39,475 nucleotides of DNA from NCBI GenBank assembly GCA_018969425.1, contig JAGWYJ010000030.1:1-39475 (forward strand). The letters run 5' to 3'. This DNA is from Alphaproteobacteria bacterium. Its GTDB lineage: Bacteria > Pseudomonadota > Alphaproteobacteria > Caulobacterales > Hyphomonadaceae. The notes beneath the pieces were generated by a model. The model had not been told where the DNA came from, made no database searches, and saw nothing but the letters and a program-made list of their open reading frames with translations. A program made the position numbers and the translations under genes. The stretch's first letter is position 1, and each line of letters begins with the position of its first letter. Shown in pieces: positions 15,918-39,400 of the stretch.

Positions 15918-15931
15918 TTGATCCCGATCAA
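15918..15931. promoter_or_regulatory. FNR/FixK-type box upstream of the class II ribonucleotide reductase
   Basis: The sequence TTGATCCCGATCAA is a perfect match to the FNR/ANR/FixK consensus TTGAT-N4-ATCAA. Its centre is 82 bp before the ribonucleotide reductase start. Class II activation geometry (-41.5) would put the transcription start near 15966, leaving a leader of about 40 bases. Oxygen-limited induction of an oxygen-independent reductase fits. Confidence 0.82.
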
Positions 15932-16006
15932 CCCCGCTTCGTCTGATCAGAGGCTCCTCGCGAGGGGACCTCAGAGTCCCGGCGCCCGGAACGTGGAGAG
16001 GGGTGG

Positions 16007-17782
16007 ATGAACGCGCGGGAGCTTTCATCCCTGATCTGGTCCCTTAAGTACCGGTTACGCGGCGAACGACGCATCGCCGACACATTCAGACGGGTCGCCG
16101 GAGCGGTCGCCTCAGCAGAGGCTGATCGTCCCCGGTGGACTGAAGCCTACCTCGCGTTGCTGGAGAGCGGACAGTTCATTCCCGGCGGCCGGATCCTTGC
16201 GAACGCCGGTGACCGAGAGGGAGAGACACTCTGCAACTGTTTCGTCTCAGGCGAAGTGTCCCCCTCCCTCGAAACCCTTATGGAGCACCTGAGAGACGTG
16301 ACCTCAACCCTCGCTTCCGGAGGGGGGGTCGGCGCCGATGTCTCGCCCCTGGGGCCTAAGGGAACGACAGACTCGCGCGGTCGCCCTCATACCGATCCAT
16401 TGTCCTACCTGCGCCTCCTGAATAGCGCAGCCGAAGCCTTCCCTGCAGGACGACGCAGACACGGGGCTCTCATGGCCTCCCTCTCATGCCGTCACCCGGA
16501 CATCGAAGCCTTTGTGTCCGCTCAGGGTCCTGATCTCAGCCATTTCGCTCTCTCGGTTCAGATTTCAGACGAGTTCATGAACGCAGCCATCGCAGACCGG
16601 CGCTGGCGTCTGCGTCACCCCGAGGGCGGCGGCGCATGGATACGCGCCAGAGATCTCCTCACACAGATCGCCTCATGCGCCCGACGCACCGGGACGCCCG
16701 GTGTGCTGTTCATCGATCGGATCAATGATGACAACACCCTCTGGTGGCGGGAGCGCCTCACAACGACCAATCCATGTGGAGAAGCGCCCATGCCCGCTCA
16801 TGGCGCCTGCACCCTGGGGTCTCTGAATCTATGTGCGTTCGTCATTGATCCGTTCGGCCCCGCGCCTCAGATCGACTGGCCGGGCCTCGAATCCGCCAGC
16901 GCGGCCGCTATCCGATTTCTGGACGCCGTTCTCGATCTCACGCCTTACCCTTTGCCGGCGCAGCGCGATGAGGCTAGCGCGGTCAGACGGGTGGGCCTTG
17001 GGGTGACAGGGCTTGGAGACGCGCTGGTTTTACTGGGCGTTTCATACTCCTCCTCCCATGGAAGACATCTTGCGCAGGAGATAATGAAAGCGATCCGGGA
17101 TTTCGCCTACAAGGCCTCCGTTGATCTTGGCGTGGAAAAAGGATCCTTTCCGGCGCTCGATCGGAATAAATTCCTGCAGGGCGGCTTCGCCCGTCGTCTG
17201 CCGGAGACCATACGACAATCTATCCGGCGATACGGATTGAGAAACGGCCGCCTTCTCGCGATTGCTCCTGCAGGTTCCATCAGCCTTCTGGCGGGCGGGG
17301 TTTCCAGCGGCATCGAACCCATATTCGCAGCCGTCACGCGTCGTCACCTTCGCGATCTGCGCGGAGAACCGCAGTCGATTGATATCCACTCGGTGAGCCT
17401 GTCCAAATGGCGAGAAACTACCGGGGAAACCGGCGCGGTTCCGCCGTTTTTTTTGACCGCCAACGAAATTTCCCCGATGGACCAGCTGGCCATGCAAGCG
17501 GCGGTTCAGCCGCTTGTCGACGGCGCTGTCTCAAAGACTGTCACCCTGCCTCAATCTGCGACGGACATGGATGTGGAAGGATTGATCCTCGAGGCCTCGA
17601 GGCTCGAAATCAAGGGCTGCTCTTTTTTCTCGCCAGGCGCCTCAAATGACAATTTTCTTTCAGCCTCCGAGCGTTCCTGCGCAGACACATCAGCCCGCAC
17701 CCGATCCGACAGCAACTCTCCTCCTCCGTGTCCACTCGAGGTTGCGCCCAGTCCGGCGCGCCCCAAAATGAAAGGCGACTAA
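16007..17782 (+). CDS. nrdJ: Adenosylcobalamin-dependent (class II) ribonucleotide reductase
   Basis: This 591-residue protein belongs to the compact class II reductases, which make deoxyribonucleotides with a coenzyme B12 radical and need no oxygen. Active-site elements are LCNCFVSG (Cys78 likely one of the redox cysteines), TNPCGEAP (Cys257, predicted thiyl radical) and GACTLGSLNL (Cys268, partner cysteine). GSISLLAGGVSSGIEPIFA and EIKGCSFFSPG match the barrel's later strands. The C-terminal tail is rich in Ser, Thr and Pro, with only two well-separated cysteines and no clear CxxC or CC pair, which is unusual because a tail pair normally re-reduces the active site. GGAGAGGGG precedes the ATG. 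It is followed after one base by an SDR gene. Confidence 0.88.
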   Translation: MNARELSSLIWSLKYRLRGERRIADTFRRVAGAVASAEADRPRWTEAYLALLESGQFIPGGRILANAGDREGETLCNCFVSGEVSPSLETLMEHLRDVTSTLASGGGVGADVSPLGPKGTTDSRGRPHTDPLSYLRLLNSAAEAFPAGRRRHGALMASLSCRHPDIEAFVSAQGPDLSHFALSVQISDEFMNAAIADRRWRLRHPEGGGAWIRARDLLTQIASCARRTGTPGVLFIDRINDDNTLWWRERLTTTNPCGEAPMPAHGACTLGSLNLCAFVIDPFGPAPQIDWPGLESASAAAIRFLDAVLDLTPYPLPAQRDEASAVRRVGLGVTGLGDALVLLGVSYSSSHGRHLAQEIMKAIRDFAYKASVDLGVEKGSFPALDRNKFLQGGFARRLPETIRQSIRRYGLRNGRLLAIAPAGSISLLAGGVSSGIEPIFAAVTRRHLRDLRGEPQSIDIHSVSLSKWRETTGETGAVPPFFLTANEISPMDQLAMQAAVQPLVDGAVSKTVTLPQSATDMDVEGLILEASRLEIKGCSFFSPGASNDNFLSASERSCADTSARTRSDSNSPPPCPLEVAPSPARPKMKGD

Positions 17783-17783
17783 C

Positions 17784-18551
17784 ATGAAGCGACTGACTGG
17801 CAAGCGCGCGGTCATCACAGGCGGGGCGGTGGGCATTGGAGAGGCCTGCGCCCGGCGTATGGCTCAGGAGGGCGCCCAAATCGCCATCCTTGATATTCTT
17901 GACGTCGAGGGCCGACGCCTCGCGGCAGAGATCGTCCGGGAGGGCGCTTCCGCCATCTACATTTCATGCGACGTTCGTTCCGAGCGGCAGGTGTCTGACG
18001 CAATGACATCTGCAGCTAAGGCGATGGGCGGCCTCGATGTCCTGGTGAACAATGCAGGCATCTCAGGTTCCAGACGTCCGACACATGAACTCACTGAAGA
18101 AGAATGGGACCTCGTTCAGGCGGTCAACGTCAAGGGCGTATTCTTCTGCACGAAACACGCCATCTCACACATGAAGTCCGCCCGCGGCGGAAGCATCATC
18201 AATCTCTCGTCAATCTACGGTCTGGTCGGGGCAGCGGACGTTCCGGCCTACCACGCCTCAAAGGGAGCCGTCCGCCTGATGACCAAGACTGACGCGATGC
18301 TCTATGCGGCAGACGGGATCCGCGTGAACTCGATCCATCCGGGATTTATCGAGACAGATATGGTCCGGAAGTTCCTCAATGATCAACCCGATCCGGCGGC
18401 GGCTCGCGCAGGCGCCAGCGCGCTGCATCCTCTTGGCCGAATCGGCGTTCCCGACGATATCGCCTGGGGGTGCGTCTACCTCGCGTCCGATGAAAGCGGC
18501 TTCGTGACAGGTTCGGAGCTTGTCATTGATGGCGGATATACGGCGAGGTGA
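17784..18551 (+). CDS. Short-chain dehydrogenase/reductase (SDR)
   Basis: This 255-residue classical SDR uses NAD(P)H on an alcohol or ketone. The cofactor loop TGGAVGIG is near residue 11, NNAGISGS near 90, the catalytic serine sits in NLSSIYG near 143, and YHASK gives Tyr156 and Lys160. The SIHPGFIETDM segment follows. An acidic residue after beta-2 (AILDILD) favours NAD. It begins one base after the reductase stop, so it should share the FNR-type promoter. A role in redox balance or hydroxyacid metabolism at low oxygen is inference only; the substrate cannot be assigned. Confidence 0.88.
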   Translation: MKRLTGKRAVITGGAVGIGEACARRMAQEGAQIAILDILDVEGRRLAAEIVREGASAIYISCDVRSERQVSDAMTSAAKAMGGLDVLVNNAGISGSRRPTHELTEEEWDLVQAVNVKGVFFCTKHAISHMKSARGGSIINLSSIYGLVGAADVPAYHASKGAVRLMTKTDAMLYAADGIRVNSIHPGFIETDMVRKFLNDQPDPAAARAGASALHPLGRIGVPDDIAWGCVYLASDESGFVTGSELVIDGGYTAR

Positions 18552-18599
18552 AGGGGTCCAACTCCGCCGGATGCCATTTCCCACAGACTCTCTAAAACG

Positions 18600-18635: not shown

Positions 18636-18667
18636 TTGCCGAGGTTGTCGCGGGTCCTATCGACGGA

Positions 18668-18982
18668 TCAGCGACGGGTTGCAGTCCTGGCCCGCTGCCC
18701 GAGGGCGAGGCCGATCACCGCTACGGCTGCAATCGCGAGAGCCGCCGTCGCCGCCGGATGGGTCCTCATCTGCCGACCTGCTCCCTTAGCGGCCTTCACA
18801 CTCGTCTCTCGCGCCTGTCTCGCGAAGTCCGAGGCAGCGTCGACAAGAGCAGCGCCGGATTTCGACATCGTGTCGCCAGCATCCTCTCCGATATGTCTCG
18901 CCATTTTGCTCAGGCTATGAACGACATCCTGATAGACGTCCCCCACTTCCTCGGCGACGCGTCTGGATACGTTGTTGACCAT
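18668..18982 (-). CDS. DUF883-type (YqjD/ElaB-like) membrane-anchored protein
   Basis: This 104-residue protein is helical and amphipathic for most of its length (VAEEVGDVYQDVVHSLSKMA, then ARQARETSVKAAKGAGRQM). It ends in one membrane segment (AATAALAIAAVAVIGLALG, about residues 80-98) with a short arginine tail. This layout is that of the DUF883/YqjD/ElaB family, C-tail-anchored inner-membrane proteins linked to stationary-phase stress and, for YqjD, ribosome binding. The ATG at 18982 is chosen over two upstream ones because AGGAG precedes it at good spacing. An FNR/FixK-type box is centred 60 bp upstream. Confidence 0.75.
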   Translation of the reverse strand: MVNNVSRRVAEEVGDVYQDVVHSLSKMARHIGEDAGDTMSKSGAALVDAASDFARQARETSVKAAKGAGRQMRTHPAATAALAIAAVAVIGLALGQRARTATRR

Positions 18983-19035: not shown

Positions 19036-19049
19036 TTGACCGCAATCAA
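19036..19049. promoter_or_regulatory. FNR/FixK-type box upstream of the DUF883-type gene
   Basis: TTGACCGCAATCAA fits TTGAY-N4-RTCAA. Its centre is 60 bp before the start codon at 18982 on the minus strand, which gives a leader of about 19 bases if bound at -41.5. Confidence 0.78.
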
Positions 19050-19175: not shown

Positions 19176-20012
19176 TCAATGAGAGATGAAGATAGGGAAT
19201 GTCGGCTTCGCCAGGAGATCACGACTGACGCCGCCAAGAATGAGCTCCCGGACGCGGGACGCGCCATAAACTCCCATCACCAAAAGGTCTGAACCCGACT
19301 TGCCCATCTCAAGACGGAGAACGTCAGCCGCCGACGCGTCAGTCAGGTGATTTTCAATAAAGGTCATCGTGAGACCGTGAGCGTCGAAAAAACTTTCCAG
19401 CCATGGATCGCTCGTCCTCCCAGGACCAGCCCCTACTCGGACGACAGTGATGCTTTCGGCGCATTTAAGGAGAGGCCAGGCGTCCCTGAGGGCGCGGGCC
19501 GACTCCCGCGTTCCCTTCCACGCCACCATTATCCTTCGCCCCGTCAAAGGCTCATAGCCGGCATCGGGCAGCACAAGAACAGGCCCGCCCGACGCCATGG
19601 CGATCTGAGCCGCTGAGACCCGGTTCTGTCCAAGACTGGCCTGCACTGAGACTGGCGAGACCACAAGATCACATCGACGAGCGCAATCGAGGACGTCGTC
19701 GTCCAGATCGCCGTCAACGGTTCGCCACGCAGCGCTCGTTCCGGCGTCCCTGGCCGCCTGCTCAAGGCAGCGACGCGCTTGGTCGGACGCCTCAGACACG
19801 GCGTCTGCATGACGCTTCAGAAGCCTGTCGATGTCATCCGGCGGCATGAAGGCGAGCGCCTCTCCGGCCCCGTAAGTCCTCATAAGATCCGATCTCATGA
19901 ATAGGCCGGTAATCCGGGCCCCAAGCTTATGTGCAATCGCGGTCGCAGCCCGCGCGCGGAGCGTCGCCGCCGGGGTATCGTCCATCAATACCAGAATACT
20001 TTTGCAAACCAT
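19176..20012 (-). CDS. Universal stress protein (tandem UspA domains)
   Basis: This 278-residue protein has two Usp folds. The first begins KSILVLMDDTPAA at residue 3; the second begins RRIMVAWKGTRESARALRDA and ends with GVYGASRVRELILGGVSRDLL, matching the G-2X-G-9X-G nucleotide-binding pattern with glycine in place of the usual Ser/Thr. Tandem Usp proteins of this kind are often induced by oxygen limitation or stationary phase. The ATG at 20012 has GGGAGGG seven bases upstream; the frame continues upstream to 20102 without a ribosome binding site. An FNR/FixK-type box is centred 60 bp upstream. Confidence 0.9.
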   Translation of the reverse strand: MVCKSILVLMDDTPAATLRARAATAIAHKLGARITGLFMRSDLMRTYGAGEALAFMPPDDIDRLLKRHADAVSEASDQARRCLEQAARDAGTSAAWRTVDGDLDDDVLDCARRCDLVVSPVSVQASLGQNRVSAAQIAMASGGPVLVLPDAGYEPLTGRRIMVAWKGTRESARALRDAWPLLKCAESITVVRVGAGPGRTSDPWLESFFDAHGLTMTFIENHLTDASAADVLRLEMGKSGSDLLVMGVYGASRVRELILGGVSRDLLAKPTFPIFISH

Positions 20013-20064: not shown

Positions 20065-20078
20065 TTGACAGGGGTCAA
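20065..20078. promoter_or_regulatory. FNR/FixK-type box upstream of the universal stress protein
   Basis: TTGACAGGGGTCAA is a symmetric TTGAC-N4-GTCAA palindrome centred 60 bp before the Usp start codon (minus strand). The C/G variant at position 5 is common in FixK/DNR-type sites. Confidence 0.8.
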
Positions 20079-20162: not shown

Positions 20163-20633
20163 CTATTTGGCGGACTGAATCTCAATGGTCTTGGGTTCGG
20201 CGCCGGCATGCTTGGGCGCTGTGACACGGAGCACCCCATCAGCCATCACCGCCTTGATCTTGGCCGGATCTACGCTTGCCGGAAGACTGACAGACCGCTC
20301 AAATGCGCCGTAGCTTCTCTCAATCACTCGCCGCTGACGATCCTTGGTCTCCTTTTCCAGCTTCTTCTCACCGGAGATGGTCAGGACATCATCCTCGACG
20401 GTGATCTTAACGTCCCCTTGCGTCATCCCGGGTAGTTCAAACGCGTACTCGATCGCGCCCTTGGTCTCAGTCACGTCCATACAGGGCGACAATCCGGACA
20501 GAGCGCCTGAGGTCCATCCTCGCGACAGCTGATCGAAAATGCGATCAAGTTCCCGCTGCACCGGAGTGAAAACTCCACCCCCAGATCGGGGAAAGGGCGC
20601 CAGAAAGCTCTCGCTTCCAACATGATTATTCAT
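20163..20633 (-). CDS. Small heat-shock protein (Hsp20/alpha-crystallin)
   Basis: This 156-residue ATP-independent chaperone has the alpha-crystallin domain at about residues 47-150 (YAFELPGMTQGDVKITVEDD, ERSYGAFERSVSLP, ADGVLRVTAPK). It ends with an IEIQSAK tail. The ATG at 20633 is set by AGGAG upstream; the open frame to 20684 has no such site. It is analogous in class to HspX of the mycobacterial DosR regulon. An FNR/FixK-type box lies 77 bp upstream. Confidence 0.93.
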   Translation of the reverse strand: MNNHVGSESFLAPFPRSGGGVFTPVQRELDRIFDQLSRGWTSGALSGLSPCMDVTETKGAIEYAFELPGMTQGDVKITVEDDVLTISGEKKLEKETKDRQRRVIERSYGAFERSVSLPASVDPAKIKAVMADGVLRVTAPKHAGAEPKTIEIQSAK

Positions 20634-20702: not shown

Positions 20703-20716
20703 TTGACCCCGGTCAA
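20703..20716. promoter_or_regulatory. FNR/FixK-type box upstream of Hsp20
   Basis: TTGACCCCGGTCAA is a perfect TTGAC-N4-GTCAA palindrome centred 77 bp before the Hsp20 start. It sits in the short gap after the P-type ATPase stop codon, supporting an independent Hsp20 promoter. Confidence 0.82.
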
Positions 20717-20723
20717 TCAGATC

Positions 20724-23258
20724 TCAGCTTGATGCTTTTTTCGTCTGTCTTTCATGCCCTCGCACGGCGAGCAGATCCGATCTCGTCAAGATCCCCATCC
20801 AACCGCCAGCCGGAAGAGAGAGTGCAAGCGTGATCCAGGCCGCAGGATCTGTTGGCCAGGCCACTCGAAAGACTGACGAGAGCGAAGGATGAAGGAATAT
20901 CGAAACGGTGACCACCGTGACACCTAAGGCGATAATCCAGAACACCATGCGACCTGAGTGAAAGAGAGACTGAGATTTTCCAAAACTATCTGCCAATGCT
21001 AGCGCCAATGTTGAGGCGATAAGAGAGGCGAAGCCGACGCCTCGCGCCTCCGTCTCTGAGCCCAAAGCCAGCCAGAAAGCGTAGGACGCCAGGATAAAAA
21101 CAAGCAGCACGCCCCCCTGAAGCAGCGCCAGGCTCAGTTGCGTCAGCCCGAAGAGCGATTCCCGGGGATTTCGCGGCGGCTTGTCCATGGCGTCCGCTTC
21201 GCTCGGCTCGGATTCAAAGACCAGAGAGCAGACAGGATCGATCACGAGCTCGAGAAGAACCACATGCATGGGATACATCAGCGGAGGCAGTCCGAGCAGG
21301 ATGGGCAGCAGCGCCAGACCCGCAATAGGAAGATGGACCGCAGTGATGAACATCAGGGCCTTGCGGAGGTTTATGAAAATGCGACGACCCAGGCGAATGC
21401 CTCCTACGATCGACGGAAGACCATCATCCAATAAGACGATGTCCGCCGCTTCACGCGCAACGTCAGACCCCCTACGCCCCATCGCAATCCCGATATCCGC
21501 CGCTTCGAGGGCTGGAGCATCGTTGACCCCGTCTCCAGTCATCGCAACGATCTCGCCGCGTGACCGGAACGCTCTGACCAGTCTGAGCTTCTGATCTGGC
21601 AGAACACGAGCGAAGATGCGAACTGTCCGGATCCGATCGGCCAGAGCGTCGTCGGCAAGAGCGGCTATATCCTGCCCTGTCAGATACCCTCCAGACGTAT
21701 CTATGCCAGCCTGTCTTGCAATCTCCATGGCGGTCGGAGCGTAGTCGCCCGTGATCATCACGACATTTATTCCCGCTCGCCTCGCCTCGCCGATGGCCTC
21801 GACAGCTCCTGACCGTAACGGATCCAGAAATCCGATCAGGCCAAAGAATTCGAACTGTGCAAGGTCGGGATCGGCCTCTGGAAAATCACCTCCACGCCAT
21901 CCTGCGACTCCAAGAACACGAAGACCTGATGCTGCCAGATCCTCCAGCGCTCGTGTGGCGCGAGCTCTCGGCTCGCCCTGGAGCCCGCACAGGTCAAAGA
22001 TTGTCTCCGGCGCTCCCTTGGCCGCGGCGGTGCGTTCTGTCGGCGCATCCCATAACTGGATCACCGCTAGTCGAGATGATGTCAGAGGCCAGGTGCGGAC
22101 TGGAGACACCTGGGTTTCGGCTTTGACCCCCGAACGAACTGCACTTGTGACAGCGCGATCGATCGGATCCGTGGTTCCGACGCGCGAGGCAAGCGCTGCG
22201 ATACGGAGCAGCTGGCTTTCTCCGGATCCTGCTCCTTCCGGTATCCGCTTCTCACGCCCGCGCTCAGGGGTCCAAAGGCTTTCGACCTCCATCCTGTTCT
22301 CAGTGAGCGTTCCTGTCTTGTCCACACACAGAACGCCGGCGCCGCCAAGCGTTTCGATCACAGCTGACCGCCTGACAAGAACCCGGCGCCTGGCCAGACG
22401 CCATGCGCCGAGGGCCATGAATACGGCGAGCACCATGGGAAATTCTTCTGGAACAAGAGCGACGGCTACAGTCACTCCGGCAAGGATGCCTCCAATCCAG
22501 TCTTTGAACAGCCATCCGTATGTGAGGGCGACGACGCCGCAGAATGCGATCGCCATGCCTCCAAGGCCCGCGATCAGACCTGCTGAGCGTCGTTGCAGAG
22601 GCGTGAGCTCGAACTTGATCCCGCTCAGAGACGAACTCAGGCCGCCAAGAGCGGAGCGGGGACCAGTCGCCACAACCTCAGCCGCCCCATGGCCGCGAAC
22701 GACAAGCGTTCCTCCTAATAGACGATGTCGCTCAGGATCTTCGATGGGGACGTTATCCGTTCCACTTCCACAAGTGATTGGAAAGCGATCCACAGGAGCG
22801 GATTCTCCCGTCAGAATGCTTTCATCGATTCCAAGAGTATCGCCGCGCAGAAGACGAGCGTCTGCGGGAAGTCGCTCGCCCTCCCCGACAAGGATCACGT
22901 CGCCTCTGACGAGCTCGACCGAGGGTAGCCTTATCTCTCGACCGTCTCTAATCACACGAACGGTCGGCGCAGCGAGAGTACGCAGAGCTCGCAGAGCTCT
23001 TTCGCTTCGCACCTCCTGAACAATCACAAGAGCAACTGCGAGACACGCTCCAGAGGTAAGAAAAAGACCTTCTCCGAGATCACCAATGGACAGATAGATC
23101 GCCGCTGCCAGAAAGAGCAGCAGAAACATCGGCTCTCGAACGGCCCTTAGGACGATCATCCACAATGACCGGGTCTCGGCATCCGGCCACTCGTTTCGTC
23201 CCTCAGCGAGAAGACGCCGCTGCGCCTCGAGTGACGTCAGTCCAATCACATCATCCAC
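20724..23258 (-). CDS. P-type cation-transporting ATPase (P2-like, ion unknown)
   Basis: This 844-residue inner-membrane pump has the full P-type core: an N-terminal cation-ATPase domain (LTSLEAQRRLLAEGRNEWP), the actuator LTGES, the phosphorylation motif CVDKTGTLTENRM with Asp313, and MTGDGVNDAPAL. The M4 motif reads VPEEFPMVLAV where SERCA-like pumps have PEGLP. M6 reads LLELVIDPVCS where they have an N-x-x-T-D pattern. Calcium ligands are therefore not conserved and I do not assign the ion. The start is GTG in a G-rich context. It lies 35 bp after DUF2267, so the two are probably one operon. CtpF in the DosR regulon is the functional parallel. Confidence 0.9.
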   Translation of the reverse strand: MDDVIGLTSLEAQRRLLAEGRNEWPDAETRSLWMIVLRAVREPMFLLLFLAAAIYLSIGDLGEGLFLTSGACLAVALVIVQEVRSERALRALRTLAAPTVRVIRDGREIRLPSVELVRGDVILVGEGERLPADARLLRGDTLGIDESILTGESAPVDRFPITCGSGTDNVPIEDPERHRLLGGTLVVRGHGAAEVVATGPRSALGGLSSSLSGIKFELTPLQRRSAGLIAGLGGMAIAFCGVVALTYGWLFKDWIGGILAGVTVAVALVPEEFPMVLAVFMALGAWRLARRRVLVRRSAVIETLGGAGVLCVDKTGTLTENRMEVESLWTPERGREKRIPEGAGSGESQLLRIAALASRVGTTDPIDRAVTSAVRSGVKAETQVSPVRTWPLTSSRLAVIQLWDAPTERTAAAKGAPETIFDLCGLQGEPRARATRALEDLAASGLRVLGVAGWRGGDFPEADPDLAQFEFFGLIGFLDPLRSGAVEAIGEARRAGINVVMITGDYAPTAMEIARQAGIDTSGGYLTGQDIAALADDALADRIRTVRIFARVLPDQKLRLVRAFRSRGEIVAMTGDGVNDAPALEAADIGIAMGRRGSDVAREAADIVLLDDGLPSIVGGIRLGRRIFINLRKALMFITAVHLPIAGLALLPILLGLPPLMYPMHVVLLELVIDPVCSLVFESEPSEADAMDKPPRNPRESLFGLTQLSLALLQGGVLLVFILASYAFWLALGSETEARGVGFASLIASTLALALADSFGKSQSLFHSGRMVFWIIALGVTVVTVSIFLHPSLSSVFRVAWPTDPAAWITLALSLPAGGWMGILTRSDLLAVRGHERQTKKASS

Positions 23259-23831: not shown

Positions 23832-23845
23832 TTGATCGGGATCAA
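23832..23845. promoter_or_regulatory. FNR/FixK-type box shared by two divergent operons
   Basis: TTGATCGGGATCAA is an exact consensus site centred 105 bp before DUF2267 (minus strand) and 74 bp before the phasin-like gene (plus strand). One dimer could activate both directions because the site is palindromic. Confidence 0.82.
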
Positions 23846-23911: not shown

Positions 23912-24166
23912 ATGCCGAAAGACACTACAGGTCACGCAAGTCGCTCCGATGCCGGTTCGGCTCTCAACGGTTTCTGGACCTCACGATCCGATCCGCTCCA
24001 GATGTGGTCCCGGACCTGCGACCTTTACTCCCGATATTTCGCTGCTCTTTCGAAAGCGCAGAGTCCTGAGGGTCTGATGGCGGCGAACGCTGAGCTTCTT
24101 GCTGGAGGCATGGAGGCAATCGGAGGCAGATCCTCCTCCAGCAATGGTCATGCATCAGCCCCTTAA
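23912..24166 (+). CDS. Small phasin-like protein
   Basis: The start of this 84-residue protein is fixed by AAGGAGG six bases before the ATG. The core NGFWTSRSDPLQMWSRTCDL, then FAALSKAQSPEGLMAANAEL, is an amphipathic helical pattern like that of phasin-family proteins (DPLQ-W-LYxR-FxxLxxAxSPEELMxxxAEL), which coat polyhydroxyalkanoate granules. The length is shorter than most phasins and I found no polyester synthase nearby, so the call is tentative. The tail is Ser/Gly-rich. The FNR/FixK-type box 74 bp upstream places it in the island regulon. Confidence 0.5.
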   Translation: MPKDTTGHASRSDAGSALNGFWTSRSDPLQMWSRTCDLYSRYFAALSKAQSPEGLMAANAELLAGGMEAIGGRSSSSNGHASAP

Positions 24167-26441: not shown

Positions 26442-26455
26442 TTGATCGACGTCAA
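26442..26455. promoter_or_regulatory. FNR/FixK-type box shared by divergent membrane-protein and ligase genes
   Basis: TTGATCGACGTCAA fits TTGAY-N4-RTCAA. Its centre is about 64 bp from both divergent start codons (26384 and 26512), an almost exactly symmetric placement. Confidence 0.8.
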
Positions 26456-32433: not shown

Positions 32434-33273
32434 ATGACCAAGCCTAACGATAATTCGCGGGACAGACAGAGAGCTCTGGACATCGAGGTCAGAATTCCGG
32501 CATCGGGGCAACAGCCTCCTGTGTGGGCGAGCCGCCCGGATGAGGCCGGGAGATGGATCGTCGAACTCGCCGAATACGCATTCCGGGAAGCTTTCGATGG
32601 AACGGTCACCCCCGGGCACGCCTATGCCGAAGCTGACGCTTTCGTCCAGTATCTGACCGCCATGGCCCATCCGACTGCGGCCAACCGGGAAGTGATCCGG
32701 GGCGATCTCAGGAGCCTGGTCAGTCGCCTTGAACATGACCTCTCGATCAAATTCGATTGCGGACAGCAGAGGCCGTCGGTCAGCCTTGATCCCGACAGAA
32801 CTTTTCTGGGACACGATACGCAACTTCCGACCCGTCATTCGGGAGAATCCCCATCCAACGGGGGACAGACGACCCTGCATATGCTTGAGGGACACCAGAA
32901 TGGATCCTCAGACAGTCTCTCGCAGAGGAACATTGAGGGTCGCCAGACGGGCTCAGCCCTGATGTGGACCGGCGCCTGTCTCGGCGGGGCCCTGATCGCA
33001 GCGGCGTTTCTGGGATGGAATGTGATTGAACTCAGAGAGGAGGTTCGGCAGACGCGGGACCTACAGGCGACAGTCAGCCGCCTGACAACCGACCTGCGCC
33101 TGCTGAGTTCGGCCCGATCCTTCGAGACCATGGAATGTCAACGGTCCATTCGCGAACATCGGACCATGATTACCAACCTCGCCAAGCAGTGCACGCCCAA
33201 GCAGCCTGCGCCAACCCCTCCAGCTCCGCCGGCGCCTTATCCGAATTCCCCAGATCCGTTCGCCACACGCTAG
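32434..33273 (+). CDS. Single-pass membrane protein of unknown function
   Basis: This 279-residue protein has a soluble N-terminal part of about 170 residues (containing RWIVELAEYAFREAFDGTV), one membrane helix (about 175-197, ALMWTGACLGGALIAAAFLG), a short predicted coiled coil (ELREEVRQTRDLQATVSRL) and a proline-rich tail. I do not recognise a family. The close spacing to the TPR lipoprotein suggests the two proteins work together in the envelope and share the FNR/FixK-type promoter at 30492. Confidence 0.65.
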   Translation: MTKPNDNSRDRQRALDIEVRIPASGQQPPVWASRPDEAGRWIVELAEYAFREAFDGTVTPGHAYAEADAFVQYLTAMAHPTAANREVIRGDLRSLVSRLEHDLSIKFDCGQQRPSVSLDPDRTFLGHDTQLPTRHSGESPSNGGQTTLHMLEGHQNGSSDSLSQRNIEGRQTGSALMWTGACLGGALIAAAFLGWNVIELREEVRQTRDLQATVSRLTTDLRLLSSARSFETMECQRSIREHRTMITNLAKQCTPKQPAPTPPAPPAPYPNSPDPFATR

Positions 33274-33405: not shown

Positions 33406-34698
33406 ATGGAGACCGGATCGCCTAAGACAGTCATTTCAGCTCCCGAGCTCAGAGCGGCCTCTCTGAATCTCGACTGTTTTTGCGAGACCCTCGACACCCC
33501 TCAGCTAGCCCGAGAGCTCGCCAGGCAAAGCGGCGATCCTGATTTTCATCGGAACCATGTCGCCAATCGGCCGCATCTGCTGTCCGGTGTGCCGGTTTTC
33601 GCCCCCCAATCCGCCAGACATTCCATGCTGGAGACGATCGCCGCTATCGAGGCGGTGGTCCAAACACCTTCCTTTCAGGCTCAGGTCCTTGAAAGCGCCG
33701 ATGACCCCCTGCTTCGCGATCGTGGTCCGGTTGGGGTCTTCATGGGCTATGACTTCCATCTTCATGACGGACCGCCGAGGCTGATCGAGATCAACACAAA
33801 CGCAGGGGGCGCCTTCCTCAACGCCGCCAGCGTGCGCGCCCATAAGGCCTGCTGCGCAGAAATGGATCCTGCTCTGAGAGAAGTGTGGTCGGAATCTTTC
33901 GAAGCCAATGTGATCGGCATGTTTCGCCAGGAGTGGATACGATCCGGCAGGCATCCCGAAGATCTGCGGCGTATCGCCATCGTCGATCAGGAACCCTCCG
34001 ATCAGTTTCTGTATCCAGAGTTCCTGCTTGCCCAACGGCTCTTCGAGCGTCATGGGATCGAGGCGATGATCATCGACCCCTCCGAGCTTCAATGTGAACG
34101 AACCAGCCTCACAGCCAGAGGGGTCAGTCTTGATCTGGTCTATAACCGCCTGACAGACTTCTCGCTGAGCGAGCCGCGCAACGCAGCGCTTAGACAGGCT
34201 CTGCTTGACGATCGAGCGGTTATCACGCCTGATCCGCGTGCGCACGCTCTCTATGCGGACAAGCGCAATCTAACCTTCCTTTCGGATCCTGATTTCCTAA
34301 GCGGTCTGAACATCGGGGACAAAGAACTCTCCGCATTGTCGGACATTCCGCGCGCCGTACTGGTCAGACCGGAGACCTCTGACGATCTGTGGCGTAAACG
34401 GGGGCGAATGTTTTTCAAACCAATGTCAGGCTATGGCGGCAAGGCGGTCTATCGCGGCGACAAGATCACGCGGCGGGTCTGGGAAGATATTCTGCAGGCG
34501 CCCTATATCGCTCAGGAACTGGCGACTCCCGGAGAGAGACGCATGCTTGTCGAGGGGACGGCCGTCGCACGAAAGATGGATGTGCGGATCTATACCTATG
34601 AGGGCGCGCCCCTGCTCGCAGCGGCCCGGCTTTACCAGGGCCAGACGACCAATTTCAGAACACCTGGAGGCGGCTTTGCCCCCGTGTTTTTCGTCTGA
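33406..34698 (+). CDS. ATP-grasp-like protein of unknown function
   Basis: This 430-residue protein appears to have an ATP-grasp-type ligase fold. MFFKPMSGYGGKAVYRG resembles the ATP-binding lysine and glycine-rich loop, and ARLYQGQTTNFRTPGGGFAP resembles the catalytic C-terminal segment. Earlier, PPRLIEINTNAGGAFLNAAS also looks like a ligand-binding loop. It may join an amino or carboxyl group to a peptide- or polyamine-like substrate; I cannot say which. The ATG has AAAGGCGG upstream. It sits 132 bp after the preceding gene with no FNR-type box of its own and is convergent with the 2-hydroxyacid oxidase. Confidence 0.55.
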   Translation: METGSPKTVISAPELRAASLNLDCFCETLDTPQLARELARQSGDPDFHRNHVANRPHLLSGVPVFAPQSARHSMLETIAAIEAVVQTPSFQAQVLESADDPLLRDRGPVGVFMGYDFHLHDGPPRLIEINTNAGGAFLNAASVRAHKACCAEMDPALREVWSESFEANVIGMFRQEWIRSGRHPEDLRRIAIVDQEPSDQFLYPEFLLAQRLFERHGIEAMIIDPSELQCERTSLTARGVSLDLVYNRLTDFSLSEPRNAALRQALLDDRAVITPDPRAHALYADKRNLTFLSDPDFLSGLNIGDKELSALSDIPRAVLVRPETSDDLWRKRGRMFFKPMSGYGGKAVYRGDKITRRVWEDILQAPYIAQELATPGERRMLVEGTAVARKMDVRIYTYEGAPLLAAARLYQGQTTNFRTPGGGFAPVFFV

Positions 34699-34748: not shown

Positions 34749-35960
34749 TCAGATAGGCGTGAGATTGTTTCGTCCTATGGCGCCAATACGCGTCACGCCC
34801 GCCTGCCGCATGACTGACCGCAGTTCTTCATCCAGTATGCTCAGAACAGCCTCGACGCCCTCGGATCCGAAAGCCGATAATCCCCAGATATAGGGCCGCC
34901 CCACACAGACCGCGCTCGCGCCAAGAGACAGCGCCTTAAAGACGTCCGTTCCCCTTCGGACGCCTCCATCCATGAGAATCGGAATGCGGCGATTGATCTT
35001 CGCTGCGATGGCCGGCAGGACATCGAGGGTTCCCATAAGACTCTCTTCGGCTCTGCCCCCATGATTTGACACAATGACGCCGTCCGCACCGAAGGCGAGC
35101 GCCATCTCGGCGTCCTCAGGGGTCATGATTCCCTTCACGAGAACCTTCTTCTCTGTCCAATCACGAAGCCGACGAACAAACTCCCAGGTCAGGGAGGGAT
35201 TGTTCAGCGTTCTGGCTTTCCCCAGATCAAAGCGGTCGAACATCGCCTTACGTTTCACCAGGTCGGCAAAGCCGGCCGAGCGATCGTGACAGGAAGAACA
35301 ATCGCCAGGATCGGTGCGAGCCAGACGCTCCTGCGTCTCCCGCCTCATTCCCCCGGAAAGAAGATCAGATGTGAACACAATCGCGCTGGCTCCCGCTTTG
35401 TCGGCGCGCGTCACCAGAGACTTTGCGATCTCTGTGTCATTGGTCGGATAAAGCTGGAACCAGACAGGCCCCTGTCGGTCAGATATGACCGTCTCAATTG
35501 AGATATTGGTCATGGTCGAGAGTATCTGAAGAGCGCCATGCGACCGGGCCGCTCGCGCCACAGGCCTCTCCGCCTCATGATGGTAGGCTCGCTGGCTCGC
35601 CACAGGGGCGAGGACTACGGGCGAGGCCCACGTCTCGCCAAGAAGTTTTGTGGTCAAATCTATCCTGGAGACATCGACGAGACGACGGGCCTGAATGCCC
35701 CAGCGCCGGTAAGCGGCGCGATTGGCGTCAAGCGTACCGTCATCGAGCACGCCCGTCTGAAGATAACCGAAATGAGCCGGGCGCATGGTCCGTTCCGCAA
35801 TCGGAAGGAAATCGGATACATTCAGCGCATCCTTCGCCTGGACAATCTCCCGCGGGGACACACGGAGCGTCTGAGCAAGGGCCGCGCCAGGAAGGCCCCC
35901 TGCCGCAGCGCCGAGCGCCAGATATCGGAGGACGCCTCTCCTGCATGGGTCCGGATTCAT
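34749..35960 (-). CDS. Tat-exported FMN-dependent 2-hydroxyacid oxidase/dehydrogenase with CxxCH motif
   Basis: This 403-residue enzyme oxidises an L-2-hydroxy acid such as lactate to the keto acid. Its signal peptide has a twin-arginine start (CRRGVLRYLALGAAAG) and an ALA cleavage site, so it should be periplasmic. Family marks are PVWFQLYP, VLVKGIMTPEDA, the catalytic His300 in SNHGGR, and ILMDGGVRRGTDV. In the surface loop between strand 4 and helix 4 lies DCSSCHDR (Cys221, Cys224, His225), a CxxCH c-type haem signature that LldD-like enzymes do not normally carry. The ATG at 35960 follows AGGTGG; a GTG three codons upstream would overlap it. No clear FNR-type box precedes it. Confidence 0.85.
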   Translation of the reverse strand: MNPDPCRRGVLRYLALGAAAGGLPGAALAQTLRVSPREIVQAKDALNVSDFLPIAERTMRPAHFGYLQTGVLDDGTLDANRAAYRRWGIQARRLVDVSRIDLTTKLLGETWASPVVLAPVASQRAYHHEAERPVARAARSHGALQILSTMTNISIETVISDRQGPVWFQLYPTNDTEIAKSLVTRADKAGASAIVFTSDLLSGGMRRETQERLARTDPGDCSSCHDRSAGFADLVKRKAMFDRFDLGKARTLNNPSLTWEFVRRLRDWTEKKVLVKGIMTPEDAEMALAFGADGVIVSNHGGRAEESLMGTLDVLPAIAAKINRRIPILMDGGVRRGTDVFKALSLGASAVCVGRPYIWGLSAFGSEGVEAVLSILDEELRSVMRQAGVTRIGAIGRNNLTPI

Positions 35961-36128
35961 CCTGTCCACCTGCGTTCTCCAATACGTTCCGCAGCCATCG
36001 CGCTTTCACTCTGATCAGCGCAAACCTGAGAGAGTCACTCCACGCGCATGAGCTTCACGATAAGGACCGACAAATCAAGATCATCCCAGAAGCAGACGGC
36101 GAACCAATATCGGGAGAGCCGTTCTCAG

Positions 36129-36142: not shown

Positions 36143-36176
36143 GACCTTGTCGGACCAAACAGGGGCCTATTGCCGT

Positions 36177-38126
36177 ATGGCTCTGCAAGCATCCTCCGAT
36201 CGTGGTCGCCGTGGTCGATCCAGTCTGCCGTCATCCGATCCCCCCGAGGAAACGGAAGGCGGTCTGGGCGTTTGGCTGGTCATCGGGTCTCTGGCGGCAT
36301 TATGGCTTGTTCCAGCGGTTCTTTCGCTTCTCAATCCGGTACAGACGATCTCCTACGACACTTTCGAAAAGTGGCTGTCGTCAGACCGCATCCAGAGCGT
36401 ACGTGTCACACCTGACCGCATCGAAGGAATGACCAAGGGTACAACCGCAGAGCAGACACCCAAGCCGTTTCTGACCCTTCGGGTCGACCCAGACCTCGCG
36501 CAGAGATTTATCGATCGAGGCGTTCGGGTGGAGGGTGCGCCCTCATCGAGCCTGCTGACACGTATTCTCAGCTGGGTCGCGCCCGCTCTCGCCTTCTATC
36601 TCGTCCTGCTGCTTCTCAGCTCCCGCGCAGGTTCTGGCGGAGGGCTCGCCAGCTATCTGTCTGTTGGACGATCACGTGCGAAGCTGTATCGCGATACGGG
36701 ATCACCTGTCGCATTTGACGACATCGCCGGCGTGGATGAAGCAAAGGCTGAACTCCGCGAGGTTGTAGAGTTTCTCAAAAATCCGAAGGCGTTCGGTCGT
36801 CTCGGCGCCCGCTCGCCCAAGGGAATTCTTCTTGTTGGCCCGCCAGGGACGGGAAAGACCCTTATGGCCCGTGCTGTCGCCGGTGAAGCCGGAGTTCCCT
36901 TCTTCTCGATCTCCGGGTCTGAATTTGTGGAGATGTTTGTCGGTGTCGGAGCTGCGCGCGTTCGCGACCTGTTTGAACAGGCCAGGCGAGCTGCCCCCAG
37001 CATCATCTTCATAGACGAGCTGGATGCTCTGGGCCGCGCGCGCGGCAGCGTCTTTCTCGGCGGCTATGACGAGAAGGAGCAGACGCTCAATCAGCTCCTA
37101 GCCGAAATCGACGGCTTTGATCCGAGCTCGGGCGTCATCCTTCTGGCCGCCACCAATCGTCCGGAGATTCTTGACAAAGCCCTCCTTCGAGCCGGACGCT
37201 TCGATCGTCAGGTCCTCGTCGATCGTCCAGACCAGAACGGGCGGCTTGCTATTTTGAAGGTTCACGCCCGGAAGATCCGTCTTGCCCCTGAGATGAACCT
37301 CGACATTGTCGCGGGCCTGACTACCGGATTTGTCGGGGCCGATCTTGCAAACCTCGTCAATGAGGCCGCGATCGCCGCCACGCGACGAAACGGAACGTTC
37401 GTCACCCTTGCTGACTTCGAGAGCGCAATCGAACGCATCGTGGCCGGAATCGAAAAAAGAAGCAGAGTTCTCCGGCCCTCTGAACGAAAGCGTGTCGCGG
37501 TTCACGAGATGGGTCACGCCCTCGTCGCATCGGATCTCCCATCTGTCGATCCGGTTCAAAAGGTCTCAATCATACCCAGAGGTCTTGGGGCGCTTGGCTA
37601 TACGCTTCAGCGTCCCTCGGAGGAGCGCTTTGTTCTTTCCCGCAGAGATCTTGAAGAGCGCCTCGCCGTTCTTCTCGGTGGACGTGCTGCGGAGGCCCTG
37701 GTCTACCACGAGGATGTTTCGACCGGGGCGGCTGACGATCTGCAGCACGCGACACAGATCGCTCTGGATATGGTCGAGCGCTATGGCATGGCTGCAGAGA
37801 TCGGCGAGCGCAGTCTGACGCCAAGGTCCGAAACCCTCATCACTCCTTTTCCGGGCATGTCCGGGGCGTCTCAGGATACGCAGAGGGATGTCGATCTGGC
37901 TGTTCGAAAGCTTCTTGAGAACGCCTCCAGAACTGCAGAAACTATTCTCACGCGTCGGAAACCGGATCTGGACAGGGGTGTTGAGCTTCTCCTGCGCAGC
38001 GAGACACTCAATGCGTCTCAATTTCCGGCGCTCATGAAGCGATCTGAAGGCGACGCCTCTTCTGCGTCCGGAAAGTCCGCCAACTCGGGATCTTCTGAGG
38101 AGCCTATCGGCTCCGGCCCGCCATGA
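36177..38126 (+). CDS. ftsH: ATP-dependent zinc metalloprotease FtsH (paralogue)
   Basis: This 649-residue membrane AAA protease degrades damaged membrane and regulatory proteins. It has two membrane segments (about residues 34-51 and 130-146) flanking a periplasmic domain, Walker A GPPGTGKT at 221-228, the pore motif FVG in [19 protein letters not shown], and Walker [36 protein letters not shown] is the SRH. The zinc motif HEMGH is at 443-447, with Asp521 in GAADDL as third ligand. The frame extends to a TTG at 36147; the ATG at 36177 is preferred though its ribosome binding site is poor. Its position in a stress island suggests an accessory paralogue rather than the housekeeping FtsH. Confidence 0.9.
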
Positions 38127-38131
38127 ACAGA

Positions 38132-38611
38132 TTAGAGCCAGGGCGGGGTACGGTGAGCTTGCCCGTCTGCAGCCGTCCCCCGCTCATCAAGCTCATCGAT
38201 CTGATCCAGGAGCTGCTCAAGGCGTCGACTGAGGCCGACGGCGTCAGACCCAAAGATTGCGGACGCCTCGTCAAGACCAAAGTCGAGAGCCGATACGAGA
38301 AAGAGCGCTCCTTTCACGTCGTAGGGGGCGATACGAAAAGGCCCTGTAGATGCCTCTGAGACCGCCCTGGCAGCTTCAGCAAGCCCAAGCCCAGAGGGCC
38401 CCGATCGGGCTGACGGGGCCGCCTCGAAGACTGCGCGGAAAGCGCTGAAGCGATCGGGGTTCGACTTCGTCTCCTCGATATCGCTTTGCTCCTTATCCAG
38501 ACTGGCCAGACATGCGTCAACAAAAGACGACGCACGGCATGTTGGAACGCCAAGCACAGTTGCAAACGCAGTCAGCTCTGTCTTAGCGGCCTCAGGCCTC
38601 CATACTTCCAT
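38132..38611 (-). CDS. Hypothetical protein
   Basis: This 159-residue soluble, mostly helical protein belongs to no family I recognise. It begins EVWRPEAAKTELTAFATVLG, has KSNPDRFSAFRAVFEAAPSA in the middle, and a C-terminal helix RRLEQLLDQIDELDERG. The start is set by GGAGG ten bases before the ATG; upstream ATGs lack such a site. It converges on ftsH with a 5-bp gap and faces the BON gene across the FNR/FixK-type box at 38668, which is 64 bp from its start. That placement is the best evidence that the gene is real. Confidence 0.55.
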   Translation of the reverse strand: MEVWRPEAAKTELTAFATVLGVPTCRASSFVDACLASLDKEQSDIEETKSNPDRFSAFRAVFEAAPSARSGPSGLGLAEAARAVSEASTGPFRIAPYDVKGALFLVSALDFGLDEASAIFGSDAVGLSRRLEQLLDQIDELDERGTAADGQAHRTPPWL

Positions 38612-38667
38612 CACGACACGCCTCCACTCTGTTCGTTGTTTTTTTCGCATGCCCGACGATTTCAAAG

Positions 38668-38681
38668 TTGATGAATGTCAA
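38668..38681. promoter_or_regulatory. FNR/FixK-type box shared by a hypothetical gene and the BON gene
   Basis: TTGATGAATGTCAA fits TTGAY-N4-RTCAA. Its centre is 64 bp before the minus-strand start at 38611 and 78 bp before the plus-strand start at 38753. Confidence 0.78.
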
Positions 38682-38752
38682 CGCATGTCCGCCCACATGA
38701 GGGAGAGTGCACGGGCCGCAGTGTCCGCGGCTCCAACACTGGAGATACCGAC

Positions 38753-39400
38753 ATGGACGACAAGACAATCAAGACGCTGGTCATGGATGAGCTGGAGTGG
38801 GAGCCGTCCATAGACTCCAATGATATCGGCGTGGCCGTTCAGGACGGAATCGTGAAGCTTTCCGGGTTTGTCGCCAACTACGCTCAGAAGCTGGATGCGG
38901 AAACCGCCGTCAAGCGCGTCAAAGGCGTCAGGGGATATGTCGAAGATCTTGAGGTCAGACCTTTTGCTCAGCCCTTCACTGATGAGGCCCTTGCGACTCG
39001 AATCGCAAATGTCATCGACTGGGATACGACCATCCCAAAGGGTCAGATCAAGGCGAAGGTCGAAAAGGGCTATGTCACACTCAGCGGGCAGGTGGAGTGG
39101 CAGTATCAGCGAACGGCGGCGGAGAATGTCGTACGTCCGCTGCAAGGCGTCCGCGGGGTCAGCAATCAGGTCACCGTCAAGGCTCGCGTTCAGGCGAATG
39201 ACGTCAAGAAGCGCATCGAAGACGCCCTCGCACGTCAGGCGGAGCTTGAAGCCTCGAAAATCCGGGTGACCATCGATGGAGGAAAGGTGCGGCTGGACGG
39301 CAAGGTAAGAGCCTGGTTCGAGCGGGACCTTGCAGAACGGGCTGCATGGGCGGCGCCTGGCGTCACGATGGTCGAGGATAATGTCTCCGTCGGCCTTTGA
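38753..39400 (+). CDS. Triple-BON-domain protein
   Basis: This 215-residue protein has three BON repeats of about 65-70 residues, each ending in a glycine-bearing strand: GIVKLSGFVANYAQKLDAET, GYVTLSGQVEWQYQRTAAEN and GKVRLDGKVRAWFERDLAER. BON domains bind phospholipid or other envelope ligands; related proteins (OsmY-like) are induced by osmotic and stationary-phase stress. No signal peptide is visible, so it would be cytoplasmic unless exported otherwise. The ATG at 38753 has GGAG eight bases upstream; the frame extends to 38675, overlapping the FNR-type box, so the shorter form is chosen. It ends at a hairpin. Confidence 0.9.
   Translation: MDDKTIKTLVMDELEWEPSIDSNDIGVAVQDGIVKLSGFVANYAQKLDAETAVKRVKGVRGYVEDLEVRPFAQPFTDEALATRIANVIDWDTTIPKGQIKAKVEKGYVTLSGQVEWQYQRTAAENVVRPLQGVRGVSNQVTVKARVQANDVKKRIEDALARQAELEASKIRVTIDGGKVRLDGKVRAWFERDLAERAAWAAPGVTMVEDNVSVGL

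What the first reader, a model, noticed from the sequence alone, without database searches (positions are those of the whole stretch)
15918..39400. A 23-kb island organised around eight FNR/FixK-type operators
Eight exact matches to TTGAY-N4-RTCAA lie at 15918, 19036, 20065, 20703, 23832, 26442, 30492 and 38668. All are intergenic, with centres 60-105 bp before start codons, and I found none in the first 15.9 kb. Assuming about 60 percent GC and independent bases, a hand calculation expects well under one match in the whole window. The sites include the FNR consensus (TTGAT/ATCAA) and the FixK/DNR variant (TTGAC/GTCAA). A block of stress, chaperone, transport and metabolic genes therefore appears to be one oxygen- or redox-responsive regulon packed into one locus. 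The regulator is not in the window.
Basis: partly seen in the sequence, partly recalled or inferred. Interest (0 to 1): 0.85.

Follow-up and report, generated by a model that had tools for sequence, protein, structure and literature searches.

The report
FixK-controlled low-oxygen survival gene island
A little-known bacterium keeps a set of probable low-oxygen survival genes side by side, many behind the same on-switch sequence, and the likely switch protein and its oxygen sensor lie elsewhere in the genome; the kind of system is known, and this is a tidy new example.

Summary
All eight exact TTGAY-N4-RTCAA sites are where stated (shuffles expect 0.13). The genome has 20 such sites; 8 lie in this contig, 1.2% of the bases (P about 5e-11). 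In the nearest genome, with the same gene order, all eight recur: 64 of 64 half-site bases unchanged, against 199 of 320 flanking bases. One Crp/Fnr-type transcription factor passes the family cut-off in this genome, on another contig. It is FixK-like (no FNR cysteine cluster) and lies beside an OmpR-type response regulator and a FixL-like hybrid kinase: the gene arrangement of the rhizobial hFixL-FxkR-FixK oxygen cascade. Three of five rhizobial plasmid loci opened carry that cascade beside homologues of island genes (USP, BON, P-type ATPase; acyl-CoA ligase in two, Hsp20 in two), also with these sites. Best reading: a FixK-controlled low-oxygen persistence island, a new member of a known kind. 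Corrections: FixK rather than FNR; FtsH, FMN-dehydrogenase and an ATP-grasp-like gene have no site; 12 sites lie elsewhere. Unusual: this genome and its nearest relative lack the cbb3 oxidase that lies within 10 kb of fixK in 10 of 11 relatives having both. No expression was tested.

The parts
15918..15931 (.). operator 1, TTGATCCCGATCAA, before NrdJ-type ribonucleotide reductase
   Evidence: conserved in G002:C13:114809
16007..17782 (+). adenosylcobalamin-dependent (class II, NrdJ/NrdZ-type) ribonucleotide reductase
   Evidence: PF02867 1.8e-88; TIGR02504 420.5 bits over cut-off 399.95
17784..18551 (+). short-chain dehydrogenase/reductase, probably same operon as NrdJ
   Evidence: PF13561 1.2e-67
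18668..18982 (-). small membrane-anchored protein (YqjD/ElaB-like by eye; no significant family)
   Evidence: 97% identical in G002; no Pfam match over cut-off
19036..19049 (.). operator 2, TTGACCGCAATCAA, before the 18668-18982 gene
   Evidence: G002:C13:117934
19176..20012 (-). universal stress protein
   Evidence: PF00582 5.1e-11
20065..20078 (.). operator 3, TTGACAGGGGTCAA, before USP
   Evidence: G002:C13:118966
20163..20633 (-). Hsp20 small heat-shock protein
   Evidence: PF00011 8.1e-24
20703..20716 (.). operator 4, TTGACCCCGGTCAA, before Hsp20
   Evidence: G002:C13:119605
20724..23258 (-). P-type cation ATPase
   Evidence: PF00122 6.5e-38, PF00689
23294..23734 (-). DUF2267 protein, upstream of the P-type ATPase in one likely operon
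   Evidence: PF10025 1.5e-29; 96% in G002
23832..23845 (.). operator 5, TTGATCGGGATCAA, between divergent genes
   Evidence: identical 14-mer in G002:C13:122732
23912..24166 (+). 84-aa phasin-like protein (weak)
   Evidence: PF09361 E 0.015, below cut-off
24237..25529 (+). diverged relative of the phosphotransferase/ATP-binding protein encoded on contig C82
   Evidence: 29% over 252 aligned positions, 2.6e-22, to the C82 protein
25776..26384 (-). conserved unknown, about 200 aa, no Pfam match
   Evidence: 41-43% homologues in Sinorhizobium/Ensifer loci L099 and L101, 51% in G003
26442..26455 (.). operator 6, TTGATCGACGTCAA, between divergent genes
   Evidence: G002:C13:125333
26512..29154 (+). 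NDP-forming acyl-CoA (acetate--CoA) ligase with a C-terminal part annotated GNAT in homologues
   Evidence: PF13549, PF13607; homologues named bifunctional acetate--CoA ligase/GNAT
29165..30457 (+). MgtC/DUF4010 membrane protein
   Evidence: PF13194 2.6e-41, PF02308
30492..30505 (.). operator 7, TTGACACACGTCAA
   Evidence: identical 14-mer in G002:C13:129384
30559..32394 (+). TPR protein
   Evidence: PF13432 9.1e-21
32434..33273 (+). unknown, 92% in G002, likely co-transcribed with the TPR gene
33406..34698 (+). ATP-grasp-like unknown; no operator in front
   Evidence: PF14403 E 0.097 only
34749..35969 (-). FMN-dependent dehydrogenase; no operator in front
   Evidence: PF01070 1.2e-108
36147..38126 (+). 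FtsH protease; no operator in front
   Evidence: TIGR01241 700.4 bits over cut-off 600
38132..38614 (-). unknown, 66% in G002
38668..38681 (.). operator 8, TTGATGAATGTCAA, between divergent genes
   Evidence: identical 14-mer in G002:C13:137548
38753..39400 (+). three-BON-domain protein, 100% aa identical in G002
   Evidence: PF04972 5.6e-45, 3 stretches

Best explanation
The block is a low-oxygen persistence island. Inferred chain: when oxygen falls, a FixL-like hybrid kinase with a haem-type PAS domain (contig C19:5986-7524) activates the OmpR-type response regulator next to it (C19:5202-5978, FxkR-like); this switches on the divergent fixK-like gene (C19:4378-5082) through direct repeats in the shared upstream region; the FixK-type activator binds the eight TTGAY-N4-RTCAA operators here, about 60-105 bp before start codons, and turns on genes that help a slow or non-growing, oxygen-starved cell: oxygen-independent dNTP supply (NrdJ), chaperone (Hsp20), USP, ion transport (P-type ATPase, MgtC/DUF4010), substrate-level energy metabolism (NDP-forming acyl-CoA ligase), envelope-type proteins (BON, TPR). 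Shown here: sites, enrichment, conservation, a single regulator over the family cut-off, the sensor/regulator gene cluster, homologous loci elsewhere. Inferred: binding, activation, oxygen as signal, and the physiology.
For: Site count and enrichment. Conservation of all eight in G002: 64/64 half-site bases, 15/16 Y/R, 25/32 spacer, flanks 199/320. One HTH_Crp_2 match over cut-off in the genome, at C19, the only one of four cNMP-binding matches that coincides with it. It matches FNR (3.2e-21) and FixK2 4i2o (7.2e-21); E-T-V/I-S-R is in 16 of 16 aligned proteins, and the own protein has one cysteine, Cys2, in its N-terminal part. The kinase PAS aligns with FixL haem domain 1dp6 (3.7e-26), including the HDxY segment. 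GTTACA-N6-GTGACA-N4-GTGACA lies between fixK and the response regulator, close to the K-box GTTACA-N4-GTTACA (PMC7888657, PMC4999443, passages). Rhizobial plasmids: all five opened loci have response regulator, Crp/Fnr-type gene and PAS kinase together; three have USP, BON and P-type ATPase homologues near, two of these also the ligase. A same-genus genome (G011:C50) has fixK, fxkR, hfixL, ligase, SDR, BON, USP and P-type ATPase homologues in 40 kb with 5 sites. In S. meliloti 1021 a FixK-like motif is densest in a 120-kb pSymA region whose transcription changes together (PMC5596199, section 16); a pSymA stretch holds the homologous genes and 6 sites.
Against: No expression or binding data. 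Three weaker HTH_Crp_2 matches (E 5.7e-5 to 8.7e-4, below cut-off) exist and were not examined further. The strict GTGACA-N4-GTGACA repeat is in 2 of 12 fixK upstream regions (own included), a relaxed form in 4 of 12. A published chromosomal cluster fxkRc-fixKc-hfixLc has neither anaerobox nor K-box between the genes and its kinase had little or no role (PMC7888657, passages), so the gene triplet alone does not prove an active cascade. The pSymA co-regulation was seen in storage-polymer mutants under nitrogen limitation, not at low oxygen (PMC5596199). Regulator and island are on different contigs here and in G002. Three island genes have no site. The -10-like signal at +22 is weak (1.74 of 6, other offsets about 1.0-1.6) and from non-independent sequences. 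Haem binding is inferred from alignment.
Confidence: 0.78

Rival explanations
1. The sites serve the FixK-type protein, but the signal is not oxygen: a redox, thiol or nitric-oxide cue acting on the kinase or directly on the regulator's conserved cysteines.
For: Cys2 in a shared MCI-x-GG start is in 12 of 12 proteins of this lineage aligned and in 0 of 4 rhizobial ones; two further cysteines are each in 11 of 12. PMC2908626 (passages) reports that B. japonicum FixK2 can be regulated by cysteine modification under oxidative stress.
Against: The neighbouring kinase PAS aligns with the FixL haem domain; the only PF00115 protein in the genome is an aa3-type oxidase, so no NO reductase of the NorB kind (NorB in PF00115 is recalled).
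Confidence: 0.12
2. A general stress or stationary-phase island; the TTGAY-N4-RTCAA sites are a minor input and most control comes from other factors, perhaps one of the weaker HTH matches or none of the Crp/Fnr kind.
For: USP, Hsp20, BON and FtsH also occur in general stress responses (recalled); FtsH, FMN-dehydrogenase and an ATP-grasp-like gene have no site; pSymA co-regulation was reported under nitrogen limitation.
Against: Eight promoters with full-consensus operators, all kept in G002 while flanks changed; linkage to the FixK cascade genes in other bacteria.
Confidence: 0.08
3. The clustering is chance or one promoter copied several times.
For: None beyond the shared core.
Against: No shuffle of 100 reached more than 1 site; the genes are of different families; by eye the flanks of the eight sites do not resemble one another; half-sites are kept against flanks.
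Confidence: 0.01

Closest known systems
S. meliloti pSymA FixK-motif region and Sinorhizobium/Ensifer plasmid clusters with hFixL-FxkR-FixK
   Same: Same regulator triplet and gene kinds (USP, BON, P-type ATPase; ligase/GNAT in three of the four stretches L098, L099, L101, L102; Hsp20 and MgtC/DUF4010 homologues in L099, L101, L102), with 5, 8, 9 and 6 sites; motif density and co-regulation published for a 120-kb pSymA region (PMC5596199).
   Different: There the regulator genes lie inside the cluster and it is plasmid-borne; here they are on another contig. No NrdJ match in the stretches examined. Identities of island proteins about 27-47%. That my unannotated pSymA stretch lies within the published 120 kb rests on recalled gene order.
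hFixL-FxkR-FixK cascade of Rhizobium leguminosarum and R. etli
   Same: Hybrid FixL, FxkR, FixK, anaerobox and K-box logic (PMC7888657, PMC4999443; passages).
   Different: A key published target is fixNOQP; no ccoN was found in this genome.
low-oxygen-activated (lxa) locus of Burkholderia cenocepacia
   Same: A large cluster with USP, heat-shock and BON genes, strongly induced at low oxygen (PMC6127331, PMC9733578; passages).
   Different: 50 genes, six USPs; one passage says that five of the USPs are regulated by a DNA-mimic protein, Bnr1; the word FNR occurs 0 times in either paper. The original paper (Sass 2013) is not held and was not seen.
FixLJ-FixK regulon of Caulobacterales
   Same: FixK as the only FNR/FixK-type regulator; FixK sites.
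   Different: Targets there are described as redox functions including cco and cyd, and the partner is FixJ (PMC4999443, passages); here cco and cyd were not found and the neighbouring regulator is OmpR-type.
Mycobacterial DosR dormancy regulon
   Same: Works alike: hypoxia-induced nrdZ, ctpF, hspX and a USP (PMC8044303, passages); haem-sensor kinases recalled.
   Different: Regulator and operator are of another kind (recalled); likeness in gene choice, not membership.

Membership tests
FixK subfamily of Crp/Fnr regulators | cNMP-binding fold plus HTH_Crp_2 | tested here: met
   PF13545 60.9 bits and PF00027 57.6 bits, both over cut-off, in one ORF
FixK subfamily of Crp/Fnr regulators | lacks one or more of the four FNR cluster cysteines (criterion of PMC2908626) | tested here: met
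   only Cys2 before residue 91; an arginine is aligned with FNR Cys122 (numbering recalled)
FixK subfamily of Crp/Fnr regulators | recognition helix E-x-x-S-R for TTGA half-sites (recalled) | tested here: met
   ETVSR or ETISR in 16 of 16 aligned proteins
FixK subfamily of Crp/Fnr regulators | binds and activates at these sites | not testable with these tools
   needs binding and reporter assays
hFixL (hybrid FixL) | haem-type PAS, kinase core and C-terminal receiver in one protein | tested here: met
   matches to FixL PAS, kinase and receiver structures along 512 aa; 45-46% to the 15 listed plasmid proteins over 93-94%
hFixL (hybrid FixL) | binds haem and oxygen | not testable with these tools
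   histidine segment aligned only
FxkR | OmpR-type response regulator next to fixK, acting at a K-box | tested here: inconclusive
   PF00072 and PF00486, divergent from fixK, repeats with one change per K-box half; strict repeats in 2 of 12 regions, own included; closest plasmid matches not specific
FixK/anaerobox regulon | TTGAY-N4-RTCAA before genes, kept in a relative | tested here: met
   8 of 8 in G002
FixK/anaerobox regulon | respiratory target ccoNOQP/fixNOQP | tested here: not met
   no TIGR00780 match in G000 or G002; one PF00115 protein in G000, aa3-type by its neighbours
lxa-type low-oxygen locus | cluster with USP, heat-shock and BON genes | tested here: met
   against passages of PMC6127331
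lxa-type low-oxygen locus | induction at low oxygen | not testable with these tools
   no expression data

The most novel reading that the evidence does not exclude
A FixK cascade that has lost its respiratory output: ccoN lies within 10 kb of fixK in 10 of the 11 FixK-bearing relatives that have it, but is missing from this genome and from G002, which both keep hFixL, FxkR and FixK (92%, 82% and 99.6% identical between the two) and the island with all eight operators. The oxygen circuit would then control mainly survival genes instead of a high-affinity oxidase.
Probability: 0.45. Interest if true: 0.5.

Novelty: new member of a known kind. Interest (0 to 1): 0.36.

Why it matters
It is an unusually clean case: one regulator over the family cut-off, 20 exact sites, 8 of them in one block, and a near relative in which every one of the eight is conserved. 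That makes much of a low-oxygen persistence regulon readable from sequence and carries the rhizobial hFixL-FxkR-FixK type of cascade outside the rhizobia. If the loss of cbb3 with retention of the cascade is real, it shows that this circuit can be kept without its respiratory target, which would help to separate its respiratory role from its persistence role. The gene set, including a family of unknown function at 25776-26384, is a short list for what an oxygen-starved cell may need.

Tried and rejected
FNR with an iron-sulphur cluster as the regulator: the only HTH_Crp_2 protein over cut-off lacks the cysteines. DNR/NnrR-type regulators: no second match over cut-off; three weaker matches were not examined. 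Extra degenerate sites for FtsH, FMN-dehydrogenase and the ATP-grasp-like gene: none in front at one mismatch. Reading all 12 other genomic sites as functional: rejected for C28 (inside a catalase-peroxidase-like ORF by eye) and C41 (inside the start of a coding frame), left open for C64 and C80. A paper search for USP, Hsp20, BON domain, FNR, low oxygen and gene cluster found no paper with 5 of the 6 terms; another found 6 papers with 4 of 6 terms; neither proves absence from print. Sass 2013 is not held.

Mistakes mended: one search read five minus-strand fixK loci (L036, L040, L042, L044, L047) in the wrong direction; redone. One search used two out-of-frame starts (23914, 24218), so it has no valid row for those two proteins; corrected. 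The -10 search is not relied on.


Full report
What was checked. The eight sites are real and exact. The window is the whole of contig C24 of a 3.245-Mb, 91-contig genome (99.98% complete, 1.6% contamination). That genome holds 20 exact sites, the backwards control none. Eight of 20 in 1.2% of the bases has a binomial probability of 5e-11. The first 15.9 kb hold galactose, melibiose, nucleoside and other genes and no site.

Conservation. The nearest genome among those searched (G002; a contig of the same length, 209,303 bases, appears as CAIKWZ010000013.1 of an uncultured alphaproteobacterium MAG) is collinear with the window in blastn pieces from 259 to 39436. All eight sites are there, 8 of its 17. 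Half-sites are identical at 64 of 64 bases, Y/R positions 15 of 16, spacer 25 of 32, and the 20-bp flanks of both sides together 199 of 320. All 19 predicted proteins of the block are found there at 60-100% identity, which supports the small and unknown ones as genes.

What the sites stand in front of. Distances from site centre to the chosen start are 60-104 bp. Three sites lie between divergent genes (23832, 26442, 38668), so eight sites can serve eleven promoters. Likely units: NrdJ-SDR; a small membrane protein; USP; Hsp20; DUF2267-P-type ATPase; a phasin-like protein and a diverged kinase-like protein; an unknown of 200 aa; acyl-CoA ligase-MgtC/DUF4010; TPR protein and an unknown; BON; an unknown. 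Operon structure is inferred from spacing. The ATP-grasp-like gene, the FMN-dependent dehydrogenase and FtsH have no site in front even with one mismatch. In G002 a USP-like ORF follows BON (named by eye); in our genome the contig ends there.

The regulator. A search for HTH_Crp_2 gives one match over cut-off, at C19, and three below it; of four cNMP-binding matches only the C19 one coincides with it. The protein (234 aa) resembles FNR and FixK2 about equally but lacks the FNR cysteine cluster, which by the rule in PMC2908626 (passages) puts it in the FixK group. Beside it are an OmpR-type response regulator (PF00072, PF00486) and a hybrid histidine kinase whose PAS domain aligns with the FixL haem domain. 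This is the hFixL-FxkR-FixK arrangement described for Rhizobium (PMC7888657 and PMC4999443, passages). The response regulator's closest plasmid matches are not specific, so its name rests on its neighbours. Between fixK and the response regulator lies GTTACA-N6-GTGACA-N4-GTGACA, one change per half away from the K-box; related repeats align upstream of most of 12 fixK genes (own included), the strict form in 2 and a relaxed form in 4. The site at C19:7694 stands 77 bp before a small gene, near a USP-like gene (Pfam E 0.079 only, ORF cut by the contig end); the same arrangement is in G002.

The other twelve sites. Eight are in front of genes: between cytochrome c-like and TypA-like genes (C11), the C19 small gene, an AtpI/F0 ATP synthase-like operon (C20), dodecin-like (C69), a TonB-related gene (C78), a TonB-receptor-like gene (C79), an MCP-like gene and a ribosome-hibernation-type gene followed by a phosphotransferase/ATP-binding protein (C82). 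Two are inside coding frames (C28, C41) and two are unclear (C64, C80). These names come from reading the translations by eye; the C82 kinase-like protein also matches the S. fredii gene annotated phosphotransferase/ATP-binding protein at 37%.

Comparison with other bacteria. Of the 15 listed plasmid hits of the kinase (2596 records matched) I opened five. All five have response regulator, Crp/Fnr-type gene and PAS kinase together. S. meliloti pB and S. fredii pSF45436d also have ligase, USP, BON and P-type ATPase homologues, Ensifer adhaerens has USP, BON and P-type ATPase without the ligase, and Agrobacterium and R. tumorigenes have phosphoketolase and acetate kinase instead. Homology was checked by tblastn. 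The first three stretches hold 5, 8 and 9 sites where 0.05-0.06 each are expected from base composition; 18 of these 22 lie within 156 bp before an annotated start; the last two hold 1 each. The unannotated pSymA stretch of S. meliloti 1021 has 6 sites and homologues of Hsp20, ligase, USP, BON, P-type ATPase and MgtC/DUF4010. PMC5596199 (passages and section 16) had shown a FixK-like motif densest in a 120-kb pSymA region that is co-regulated, in storage-polymer mutants under nitrogen limitation. A Variovorax plasmid, one of 25 listed ligase hits and the only one of its kind opened, carries a similar set with a Crp/Fnr gene and 2 sites. So this kind of island is known and not confined to this lineage.

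Within the genus. I searched 40 relatives for four proteins: FixK, NrdJ, the ligase and ccoN (and for the site pattern). FixK orthologues of 60% identity or more are in 11 of 14 other same-genus genomes and in 1 of 10 same-family genomes of other genera. A close NrdJ is in G002 only (81%; at most 39% in the other congeners). The ligase passes 1e-60 in 6 of 14 others. Whether smaller versions of the island exist in the rest was not searched. In G011 the regulator genes lie among the island genes. ccoN is over cut-off in 10 of the 11 FixK-bearing congeners (all but G002) and in the FixK-bearing same-family genome; in 10 of these 11 it lies within 10 kb of fixK on the same contig (G012 is the exception). 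It is not found in our genome or G002. Against a simple rule: ccoN is also missing from G004, present only as a fragment in G005, and present in G010, three congeners without a FixK orthologue. Our genome has one haem-copper oxidase, aa3-type by its neighbours, and no bd oxidase match. This suggests that the cascade outlived its respiratory target here.

Verdict. Shown: sites, enrichment, conservation, one regulator over cut-off, cascade genes, homologous loci. Inferred: oxygen signal, binding, activation, survival function. It is a new member of a known kind, with one unusual feature, the missing oxidase.

Noticed in passing
own genome C19:786-4321 (L024): SelB- and SelA-like genes (selenocysteine machinery, named by eye) lie directly beside the fixK-like gene, where 10 FixK-bearing relatives have ccoN within 10 kb.
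   Followed up: partly
own genome C20:96844 (L026 site 3345): An exact site stands about 97 bp before an ORF that looks like AtpI at the head of an F0 ATP synthase operon (by eye); the same 14-mer occurs at G002:C33:97284 (context there not checked).
   Followed up: partly
25776-26384: A 200-aa protein family without a Pfam match recurs in the S. fredii and Ensifer FixK loci at 41-43% identity and in G003 at 51%: a candidate marker of this kind of island.
   Followed up: partly
24237-25529: A diverged relative of the phosphotransferase/ATP-binding protein on C82, only 60% identical in G002 where the neighbouring proteins are at 75-96%: perhaps decaying or under different selection.
   Followed up: partly
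L024:4378-5082 and L036-L047: The 12 FixK-like proteins of this lineage aligned all begin MCI-x-GG; Cys2 is in 12 of 12 and in 0 of 4 rhizobial proteins, and two more cysteines are each in 11 of 12. Could be a thiol switch.
   Followed up: partly
38753-39400: The BON protein is 100% identical in amino acids to that of G002 while its DNA is 90% identical.
   Followed up: no
33406-34698: An ATP-grasp-like protein without a Pfam match over cut-off sits beside an FMN-dependent dehydrogenase.
   Followed up: no
G014:C7:30722-76180 and G014:C13:32030-37637: A congener has two further groups of exact sites (5 and 3), near other Crp/Fnr genes, USP, P-type ATPase, SDR and ligase homologues, and near its own NrdJ.
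   Followed up: partly
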